A stretch of 64,000 nt of DNA from Batrachochytrium dendrobatidis JAM81 (lineage: Eukaryota > Chytridiomycota > Chytridiomycetes > Rhizophydiales), in the NCBI RefSeq assembly GCF_000203795.2, contig NW_006281099.1:1801774-1865773 (forward strand), written 5' to 3'. The first letter of the stretch is position 1. Each line of letters opens with the position of its first letter. Of this stretch, positions 18,201 through 20,021 are shown piece after piece. The position numbers and the translations under genes are program-made. Under the pieces are notes generated by a model. That model searched no databases. It was not told the DNA's origin and was given only the letters and a program-made list of their open reading frames with translations.

Positions 18201-20021
18201 CCAAGGTTAAATCTATGCGCTCAGAATCGGTAAATTTGGCTAATACTTGCTCAACTGTCTGATCATCCGAAACATAGGCTTCAAAGTTATTTATCAGTGG
18301 CTGATCTGAGGGTGTAGAGTTGTTGTTTTGAAAAGACCATTGGTGGTGGTTTTGGTCCAAAGCATTTGAAACAGGAGTTTCCCGATATGTGTGATCTTTA
18401 GACTGTGCAGTCACATTATCATCACCAGCACTACTTCGAATGATTCTGGGATCATGTTGAGTCAAATCATCAATAGATGAGGTTGCAAATCCTTGCATTC
18501 CGGTTGTACCATCCACAACACGAAGATCTACCTCACGCACTGTCATGGTATACCCCGCAATATCGCGAAGCGCCGAGTCACCAGAAATAGATGCAGCACT
18601 ATTATTATTGGTAGGCAAATCAGCTACTTCGTTCTTGACAAGCATAAAATCTCTATTTCGCACACCAGCGATTCTTCTACGACCAAAATGCCTTTTTCTT
18701 TTCCAAGAATCTCCGCCAGTAGCTTGATCTATTGAAGCTTTAGATTTGACTACACCAGCATTTTGAGCAAACAGTGTTGTGCGCTGAGTAAGCGCATTCC
18801 GATGAACAAGATTTCTGATTTGCAGTTTGCTAAAATCCAACGAAGTCTTTGATGTTTGGAGCATGGACTGTACTCGGGAATTGTCGGGTGCTCGAGCTCG
18901 ATTCTTGATTTCAATAATCACCTCGTGTTGAATCTCGACTGGAAGATTTTTAAACTCGGTAGAGTCTATATTTATCTTGGAGAGATCGATATCATTACGA
19001 TGAAAAGCAATAAAGGAACGCAGCTCTTCCTCTGTTGCCAGTCTTTCGTCGTTTTTTGAAACAGACTTTAACGTAGATCTGTAAATGTGTAGATATCCAA
19101 TGAAAAACAGCAATATCAGAGTCAAAGATTTATTTGATATATGATACGGTTTAAAGTAAAATTACTTACTGATCTGCTAGCGGCAGCTCAAATTCATCTC
19201 GAAGTCGTTTTAATCCTCGTTCAGAGTTCTTATTGGCAGGGATATTGCGGTTTGAGGCTGCATCGTAGTACTGAATTGGCCGATCACTATTTTCTGTAGT
19301 TTCGATTTCACTAAATTCAATTTGGTTAATTGTAGAATGAATACAGTTGAAGCTACGAGATAGTTGTCTTTCATTTAAATTGTTCAACTTACGTTGGTTG
19401 ATTTGCAAGACTTACAATCAACGCTCGTTTTTGCAATTGTAGAGACAAGATTCTTTCTGCAGTTTTTCTCAGACTCTGCTCGACTGTAGCTCTCCGGTGT
19501 CTTCTACTTGCCTATAATTAGCAATACCCAGCATAGCATCCATCAGTGTTGGTAGCATTTCGGGTAATAAACAATCAACTTGGAGTTTAAAATAAATCCA
19601 CATACAATGGTCTGTCGTTTCAAGGCAGGTGTCGCTCCATCAAATACAAACACTGGCAGAATGCCATAAAAGAGCAGTTTGCAGATACGTCTAAAAAACC
19701 CAATAATATGTGCACCATGAAGTAGATTGCCATCTCTACTCCGCATGGCCTTGAGAAACTGATGCAGCCAAATAGAAGCATGTGAATCAACAATACATGC
19801 AATCAATATGTCAAGGAATAAGCAGTCAACCAACTATATCAACAAAGCATATTCTGCCGGATTGTAAAAAATAACCAAACTTTGGCAAGCATCCATCAGA
19901 ATATAAAACAAAAGTATATTATAAAAAAGATATCAACTGCTACTCGCTTTCCACACATGGTTTCCAAGCGTACTGGCTTGGCTGTAGTCCCGACTAGTTG
20001 CCAGAGTCCCTTGACACCCAT
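15258..20021 (-). CDS. RAD2: RAD2/XPG (ERCC5) nucleotide-excision-repair endonuclease
   Basis: Seven exons: 19934-20021, 19606-19781, 19393-19511, 19170-19310, 16372-19078, 15828-16298 and 15258-15740; 1394 residues. The N-domain starts MGVKGLWQLV and continues GKRVAVDASIWLHQFLKAMR once the first intron is removed. The I-domain holds the acidic metal ligands in TEAESQC (~1092-1098) and TDDSDVF, then the helix-hairpin-helix YLLGSDYTPGLVGIGPV. XPG makes the 3' cut in nucleotide excision repair. Between N and I lies a ~900-residue acidic, Ser-rich spacer, long as is usual for the family. Near the C-terminus QTDITQYF (~1320-1327) fits a PCNA-binding PIP box, followed by a basic RRRAGRGRRGK nuclear signal. 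The first intron appears to be of AT-AC type (separate entry). Confidence 0.92.
19782..19933 (-). other. Predicted U12-type AT-AC intron in RAD2
   Basis: Read on the minus strand, the 152-nt intron begins ATATCTTTTT (one mismatch to the U12 AT-AC donor ATATCCTTTT), contains TTCCTTGAC at 19810-19818 (a full match to the U12 branch consensus TTCCTTRAC), and ends TTCAC. Joining exon ends GTT G and AT GCT TCT ATT gives VDASIWL, the invariant start of the XPG N-domain active site. The branch A lies about 29 nt from the 3' end, longer than the usual 10-20. An alternative GT-AG intron (donor GTAGCA, acceptor GATATAG) is in frame but would replace the conserved residues with an unrelated hydrophobic insert. 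Confidence 0.75.

What the first reader, a model, noticed from the sequence alone, without database searches (positions are those of the whole stretch)
19782..19933. U12-type AT-AC intron in a fungal RAD2/XPG gene
On the minus strand the intron starts ATATCTTTTT, carries TTCCTTGAC (perfect to the U12 branch consensus) and ends AC. Removing it restores the invariant VDASIWL active-site segment. Minor-spliceosome introns are lost from most fungi, so a retained one implies that a U12 spliceosome exists in this lineage. The GT-AG alternative destroys the conserved residues. The one weak point is the ~29-nt branch-to-end distance.
Basis: partly seen in the sequence, partly recalled or inferred. Interest (0 to 1): 0.87.

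Follow-up and report, generated by a model that had tools for sequence, protein, structure and literature searches.

The report
Minor-spliceosome intron in chytrid DNA-repair gene
A chytrid fungus keeps a rare kind of intron, cut by a second splicing machine that most fungi have lost, inside its XPG/RAD2 DNA-repair gene; it looks real, it explains why the public protein model lacks its start, and it is a further case of something already reported from chytrids.

Summary
On the minus strand, removing 19933-19782 (ATATCTTTTT ... TTCCTTGAC ... AC, 152 nt) joins an 88-nt first exon to exon 2 and gives an unbroken XPG N-terminus (GKRVAVDASIWLHQF). Of 4050 frame-open junctions tried, giving 2260 distinct proteins, this one scores best against 110 homologues; the best GT-AG choice is 19 bits worse. 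The species is Batrachochytrium dendrobatidis or very close. The deposited protein of that species starts 41 residues late, so the conserved Asp30 is missing from it. The genome holds a U6atac snRNA over Rfam's cut-off and an RNPC3/U11-U12-65K orthologue. Five further AT-AC introns with ATATCCTTTT and TCCTTGAC rejoin coding sequence; for four a homologue match spans the join. U12 and U4atac RNAs were not found with limited searches; U11 was not searched. Minor introns in chytrids are already in print (PMC10639083, PMC2846911). It is a sound new member of a known kind and corrects a gene model.

The parts
19934..20021 (-). XPG/RAD2 exon 1, 88 nt, encodes MGVKGLW...AV and the first base of Asp30
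   Evidence: aligns from residue 1 with yeast Rad2 and human XPG
19782..19933 (-). U12-type AT-AC intron 1, 152 nt, phase 1
19924..19933 (-). 5' splice site ATATCTTTTT (one C to T against ATATCCTTTT)
   Evidence: rule in PMC2846911
19810..19818 (-). branch-site motif TTCCTTGAC, branch A at 19811, 29 nt from the intron end
19782..19783 (-). 3' splice site AC, first AC or AG downstream of the branch motif
19606..19781 (-). XPG exon 2, 176 nt (ends at coding position 264)
15258..19511 (-). rest of the XPG gene: exons 3-7 with GT-AG introns (19511-19393, then exon 4 to 19170, 19078-16372, 16298-15828, 15740-15258). Exon 4 starts at 19352 in my first model (1408 aa) but more likely at 19310 (1394 aa), as in the deposited protein
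   Evidence: neither U12 motif in the five GT-AG introns as first drawn

Best explanation
It is a U12-type (minor spliceosome) AT-AC intron, the first intron of the XPG/RAD2 gene in a genome of Batrachochytrium dendrobatidis or a very close relative. By established knowledge of minor splicing (inferred here, not shown), U11 and then U6atac pair with ATATCTTTTT, U12 pairs with TTCCTTGAC and bulges the branch A, and the first downstream AC is taken as the 3' end, giving Asp30 followed by ASIWL in frame. Shown here: the sequence signals, the restored conserved protein, a U6atac gene, an RNPC3 gene, and sister introns with the same signals in the same genome. Not shown: that the RNA is spliced this way.
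For: The junction ranks 1 of 2260 distinct proteins from 4050 open junctions, 162.4 bits against 143.5 for the best GT-AG. Pfam XPG_N 110.2 against 90.5 bits. Unbroken alignment to human XPG and yeast Rad2 across the join. U6atac at G000:C33:573208-573325 minus, 48 bits, cut-off 33, the only Rfam match up to E 0.1 in that 3.1-kb locus. RNPC3 orthologue at G000:C12 about 71.8 kb, matching proteins that sources name RNA-binding region-containing protein 3 and U11/U12 SNRNP65, with the QVLHLMNKM block aligned. Genome pattern searches gave 16 hits against 6 reversed-pattern controls and 12 against 7. Six of these 28 hits, this intron included, rejoin coding sequence in frame as AT-AC; for five of the six a homologue match spans the join. 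Deposited XPG proteins of B. dendrobatidis, B. salamandrivorans and Phlyctochytrium planicorne lack the first exon, as expected if gene finders did not use AT-AC ends.
Against: No RNA evidence was available. The donor departs from the consensus at one base. The 29-nt branch distance exceeds the 10-15 bases given in PMC3488318, though it lies inside the -40 to -5 range scanned in PMC2846911 and the 12-35 nt range of the six introns. U12 RNA and U4atac were not found. The U11-48K zinc finger gave only 15.1 bits against a 21.1 cut-off. Twenty-two of the 28 pattern hits had no supported AT-AC join, and the pattern excess over control is modest in the first search and small in the second.
Confidence: 0.95

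Rival explanations
1. An AT-AC intron removed by the major (U2) spliceosome, its U12-like motifs being chance or relics.
For: AT-AC introns outside the U12 class are on record: Table 2 of PMC2846911 has a column 'Other AT-AC introns'. The donor has one mismatch and the branch distance is long.
Against: A near-perfect donor together with an exact branch motif, joint chance about 4e-7; the same motifs in five other rejoining AT-AC introns; minor-spliceosome parts present.
Confidence: 0.03
2. An ordinary GT-AG intron at slightly different ends.
For: Thirteen frame-open GT-AG junctions exist among those tried.
Against: The best of them ranks 520th, separates Asp30 from its flanks by a net insert of 16 residues, and lowers the Pfam score by 20 bits.
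Confidence: 0.01
3. No intron: exon 1 is not part of the gene and translation starts at the downstream Met, as in the deposited protein P0001.
For: The deposited B. dendrobatidis model begins MRSRDGN, residue 42 of the spliced model.
Against: Exon 1 encodes 29 residues that align from residue 1 with Rad2 and XPG; 110 of the 120 listed homologues start MG[VI]. The truncated protein lacks Asp30, identical in all 110.
Confidence: 0.01

Closest known systems
U12-type AT-AC introns, as described for Rhizopus, Phycomyces and Trichinella in PMC2846911
   Same: AT-AC ends, RTATCCTT-type donor with one C to T allowed, TCCTTRAC-type branch motif
   Different: Branch A to 3' end is 29 nt, longer than the 10-15 quoted in PMC3488318; the branch motif reads TTGAC rather than TTAAC in all six introns here, in sequence where CTTGAC outnumbers CTTAAC 116 to 15
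Intron 1 of human ERCC5 (XPG)
   Same: Recalled, not checked by any search: human exon 1 ends at coding position 88 and exon 2 at 264, the same positions and phases as here. I also recall that human XPG has AT-AC introns.
   Different: Whether the human intron at this position is itself U12-type could not be verified; five paper searches listed nothing that settled it
Minor introns of Rhizophagus irregularis and other early fungi (PMC10639083)
   Same: An early-branching fungal lineage retaining minor introns and minor snRNAs
   Different: [quoted passage not shown] the six coding-supported ones here are all AT-AC

Membership tests
U12-type intron | 5' splice site RTATCCTT, one C to T allowed at +5 or +6 | tested here: met
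   ATATCTTT; rule from PMC2846911 passage
U12-type intron | Branch motif TCCTTRAC near the 3' end | tested here: met
   TTCCTTGAC, exact
U12-type intron | Short branch-to-3' end distance (10-15 in PMC3488318; -40 to -5 scanned in PMC2846911) | tested here: inconclusive
   29 nt: outside the narrow range, inside the wide one; the six introns span 12-35 nt
U12-type intron | AT-AC or GT-AG ends at a coding junction | tested here: met
   AT-AC; best-scoring of 2260 distinct proteins
U12-type intron | Removed from RNA by the minor spliceosome | not testable with these tools
   no RNA data held
Genome with a minor spliceosome | U6atac snRNA | tested here: met
   48 bits against cut-off 33
Genome with a minor spliceosome | U12 and U4atac snRNAs | tested here: inconclusive
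   no match; only 42 of 942 U12 and 48 of 706 U4atac candidates were scored; no control genome rang, and (E up to 10) seven prokaryote controls rang, none over the cut-off, so at chance level
Genome with a minor spliceosome | U11 snRNA | not tested
Genome with a minor spliceosome | RNPC3 (U11/U12-65K) | tested here: met
Genome with a minor spliceosome | U11-48K CHHC zinc finger (PF05253) | tested here: inconclusive
   one match at 15.1 bits, E 0.94, below cut-off 21.1; two prokaryote controls also rang, one over the cut-off
XPG/RAD2 | XPG_N domain and N-terminal alignment | tested here: met
   PF00752 110.2 bits; human XPG and yeast Rad2

The most novel reading that the evidence does not exclude
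This chytrid's minor introns have drifted to an almost purely AT-AC set with a relaxed branch-to-end spacing (12 to 35 nt) and a scanning-like choice of the first AC (five of six), perhaps alongside U12 and U4atac RNAs too divergent for standard models. The XPG first exon has gone unannotated in several chytrids for this reason.
Probability: 0.3. Interest if true: 0.5.

Novelty: new member of a known kind. Interest (0 to 1): 0.36.

Why it matters
It corrects a DNA-repair gene: the deposited proteins of two Batrachochytrium species and one other chytrid lack the start of the nuclease domain, including the conserved Asp30. It also gives independent evidence (U6atac, RNPC3 and six introns) that the minor spliceosome is kept in a compact 23.5-Mb fungal genome, and hints at an AT-AC bias that RNA reads could check.

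Tried and rejected
U12 snRNA: the Rfam model at E 0.001 and at E 10, and two motif patterns typed from recalled U12 sequence (up to 2 mismatches, 0 hits against 6 for the reversed control), all without a match. U4atac: the Rfam model and a pattern designed as the complement of the U6atac found here, no match. A stricter intron pattern with a 30-60 nt gap found nothing. I suspected a fault in the pattern engine, since all 16 hits had ATATC and TTGAC. A brute-force check in the window and k-mer counts showed CTTAAC to be rare in the sequence in hand (15 against 116 for CTTGAC; the fetched loci are selected for such motifs).

Pattern hits dropped: of the 16 hits, ten were read in all frames; L003, L007, L009, L010, L012 and L014 were read only as DNA, and L007, L009, L010 show the same sequence. 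L002, L005, L006, L008 and L011 gave no convincing join. L013 has an open frame on the 5' side but its 3' end stayed unresolved. Of the 12 hits, eleven were read (the twelfth, L020, is this intron) and one, L026, was kept. L027 (GTATCTTT donor) joins in frame only at an AG 2 nt past the motif, so I take it for an ordinary GT-AG intron. L015 is kept on frame alone plus a sub-threshold Foie-gras_1 match (16.5 bits against 23.3); a PDB search found only a chance-level match for it (E 0.56).

My first gene model started exon 4 at 19352 (a 40-nt intron 3). The deposited protein and a recheck favour 19310 (82-nt intron 3, 1394 aa). The longer version was used; the N-terminal tests are not affected.

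Human ERCC5 intron type: searches found no paper; one search listed nine papers, none opened. PMC2396436 is not held.

Full report
Observation. The minus strand from 20021 encodes MGVKGLWQLVGTTAKPVRLETMCGKRVAV plus the first base of an aspartate codon, 88 nt in all. From 19781 it continues ATGCTTCTATTTGG, which completes the aspartate and reads ASIWLHQF. Between them lie 152 nt that begin ATATCTTTTT, hold TTCCTTGAC at 19818-19810 and end in AC. The coordinates in the finding are exact.

Gene model. With this intron and five GT-AG introns the gene runs to 15258, exon 1 ending at coding position 88 and exon 2 at 264. My first model had 1408 residues. The deposited protein starts exon 4 42 nt later, which gives 1394 residues and a more usual 82-nt intron 3, and I now prefer that. 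The first 120 residues hit yeast Rad2 (E 1e-39) and human XPG (E 1e-30) from residue 1 with no break at the join, and PF00752 at 110.2 bits. The protein is 98% identical, over 97% of the query, to a deposited B. dendrobatidis protein. I took the species from this match, supported by a 99% match of the RNPC3 fragment; the genome itself carries no name.

Test of the junction. In a script I enumerated frame-open junctions with any dinucleotides (donor 40-199 nt and acceptor up to 329 nt from the start codon, at least 30 nt apart): 4050, giving 2260 distinct proteins. I scored them with a profile of 110 of the 120 listed homologues (those starting MG[VI]; P0001 and P0002 left out). The AT-AC junction is first at 162.4 bits; the same protein also comes from two slid junctions with TA-CA and AT-AT ends, which are not recognised splice ends. 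The next proteins score 160.8 and 159.4 with TC-TG and CT-GC, TT-CT or TT-TT ends. The best GT-AG junction ranks 520th at 143.5 bits. A28, D30, S32, I33 and W34 are identical in 110 of 110, while residue 31 is A or S.

Chance. In the window, both strands, ATATC[CT]TT occurs 10 times and TCCTT[AG]AC 3 times, so finding both in place at one of six in-register junctions has a chance near 4e-7. This is a product of frequencies, not a full model, and the counts include the intron itself.

Machinery. Rfam U6atac matches G000:C33:573208-573325 at 48 bits (cut-off 33), with the AAGGAGAGAAG block intact; it is the only Rfam match up to E 0.1 in that 3.1-kb locus. A human RNPC3 stretch gave six matches in the genome, of which I read three (L030-L032). 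The best, G000:C12:71763-71900, sits beside an exon with YTQVLHLMNKMHLPPP. The protein pieced together there retrieves a B. dendrobatidis hypothetical protein at 99% identity, a B. salamandrivorans one at 45%, many animal proteins named RNA-binding region-containing protein 3, and a JGI protein named U11/U12 SNRNP65 (best 120 of 158 listed). Both signature regions align in the eight I compared. U12 and U4atac were not found and U11 was not searched. These absences are weak: only 42 of 942 and 48 of 706 candidates were scored, and no control rang. PMC4133162 (passages) reports for Lichtheimia an atrophied third U12 stem, a divergent second half of U6atac and no U4atac, so divergent minor snRNAs in early fungi have precedent.

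Sister introns. A genome-wide pattern for donor and branch motif gave 16 hits (reversed control 6) for gaps of 31-91 and 12 hits (control 7) for 92-152. Six of the 28, the XPG intron included, rejoin coding sequence in frame as AT-AC introns. The other five are a prefoldin 5 gene (E 3e-17), an importin-9-like gene (E 3e-4, a weak match that spans the join by only six residues on the 5' side), a WD-repeat gene (WDR1 at 6e-8, matched range spanning the join; designed WD40 proteins rank higher), a DRC7-like gene (1e-10), and L015, possibly TRAPPC11, on frame and a sub-threshold match only. The other 22 hits had no supported AT-AC join and are told in Tried and rejected. The six introns all have TCCTTGAC; five have ATATCCTTTT and the XPG one ATATCTTTTT. 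Branch A to end is 12, 13, 16, 23, 29 and 35 nt, and in five of six the AC used is the first AC or AG after the motif; in the DRC7-like one the frame asks for the next AC, 2 nt on. None of the five GT-AG introns of the XPG gene, as first drawn, carries either motif; the lengthened intron 3 has no TCCTT either.

Annotation. The deposited B. dendrobatidis protein begins at MRSRDGN, 41 residues late; the B. salamandrivorans protein begins MHMVVCLPLPHASIWL, a reading that starts just before the same junction; the Phlyctochytrium planicorne protein begins MRDSEGN. These 3 of 120 (ten of the 120 do not start MG[VI]) are what a gene finder without AT-AC introns would produce. I infer, but did not show, that the last two also have the intron.

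Known or new. PMC10639083 (passages read) surveys over 3000 genomes, reports minor introns and minor snRNAs in the chytrid Spizellomyces punctatus, and names B. salamandrivorans among the species of its intron-loss figure; I saw no sentence there giving its minor-intron count. PMC2846911 (passages) cites an earlier finding of minor snRNAs in Chytridiomycota. The searches listed no paper on minor introns or U6atac of B. dendrobatidis in particular that I could find: the two papers were opened for passages, and one uses the species only for a CYP51 comparison, while in the other the U12 and U6atac passages concern Lichtheimia and 'basal fungi'. The library is partial and supplementary tables were not open to me. 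The intron is therefore a new member of a known kind. That human ERCC5 has an intron at the same coding position (88) is my recollection only.

Noticed in passing
G000:C33:573208-573325 minus (L001): U6atac snRNA gene with the conserved AAGGAGAGAAG block but a divergent 3' half (alignment).
   Followed up: partly
G000:C12 about 71.8 kb (L030): RNPC3 (U11/U12-65K) orthologue, named only hypothetical protein in the deposited record of this species.
   Followed up: yes
L004, L015, L016, L017, L026: Five further AT-AC introns with U12 signals, in importin-9-like, possibly TRAPPC11, WD-repeat (WDR1-like), DRC7-like and prefoldin-5 genes; together with XPG all six coding-supported U12-like introns are AT-AC.
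   Followed up: partly
L013 around 1500 (its minus strand): ATATCCTTTTTAG donor after an open frame, with TCCTTGAC, but the 3' end is unresolved; possibly an AT-AC intron with very long spacing.
   Followed up: no
window 20391-21500, minus strand: Neighbouring gene that looks like a glia maturation factor / ADF-homology protein (name from recall) with several short introns, judging by translated pieces.
   Followed up: no
window and loci L001-L017: CTTAAC is much rarer than CTTGAC (15 against 116, both strands; the loci are selected for such motifs), which may bias the U12 branch motif here towards TTGAC.
   Followed up: partly
L007, L009, L010: The same sequence stretch occurs at three places (C1, C3, C3), so a repeated element or gene family matches the pattern, probably by chance.
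   Followed up: no
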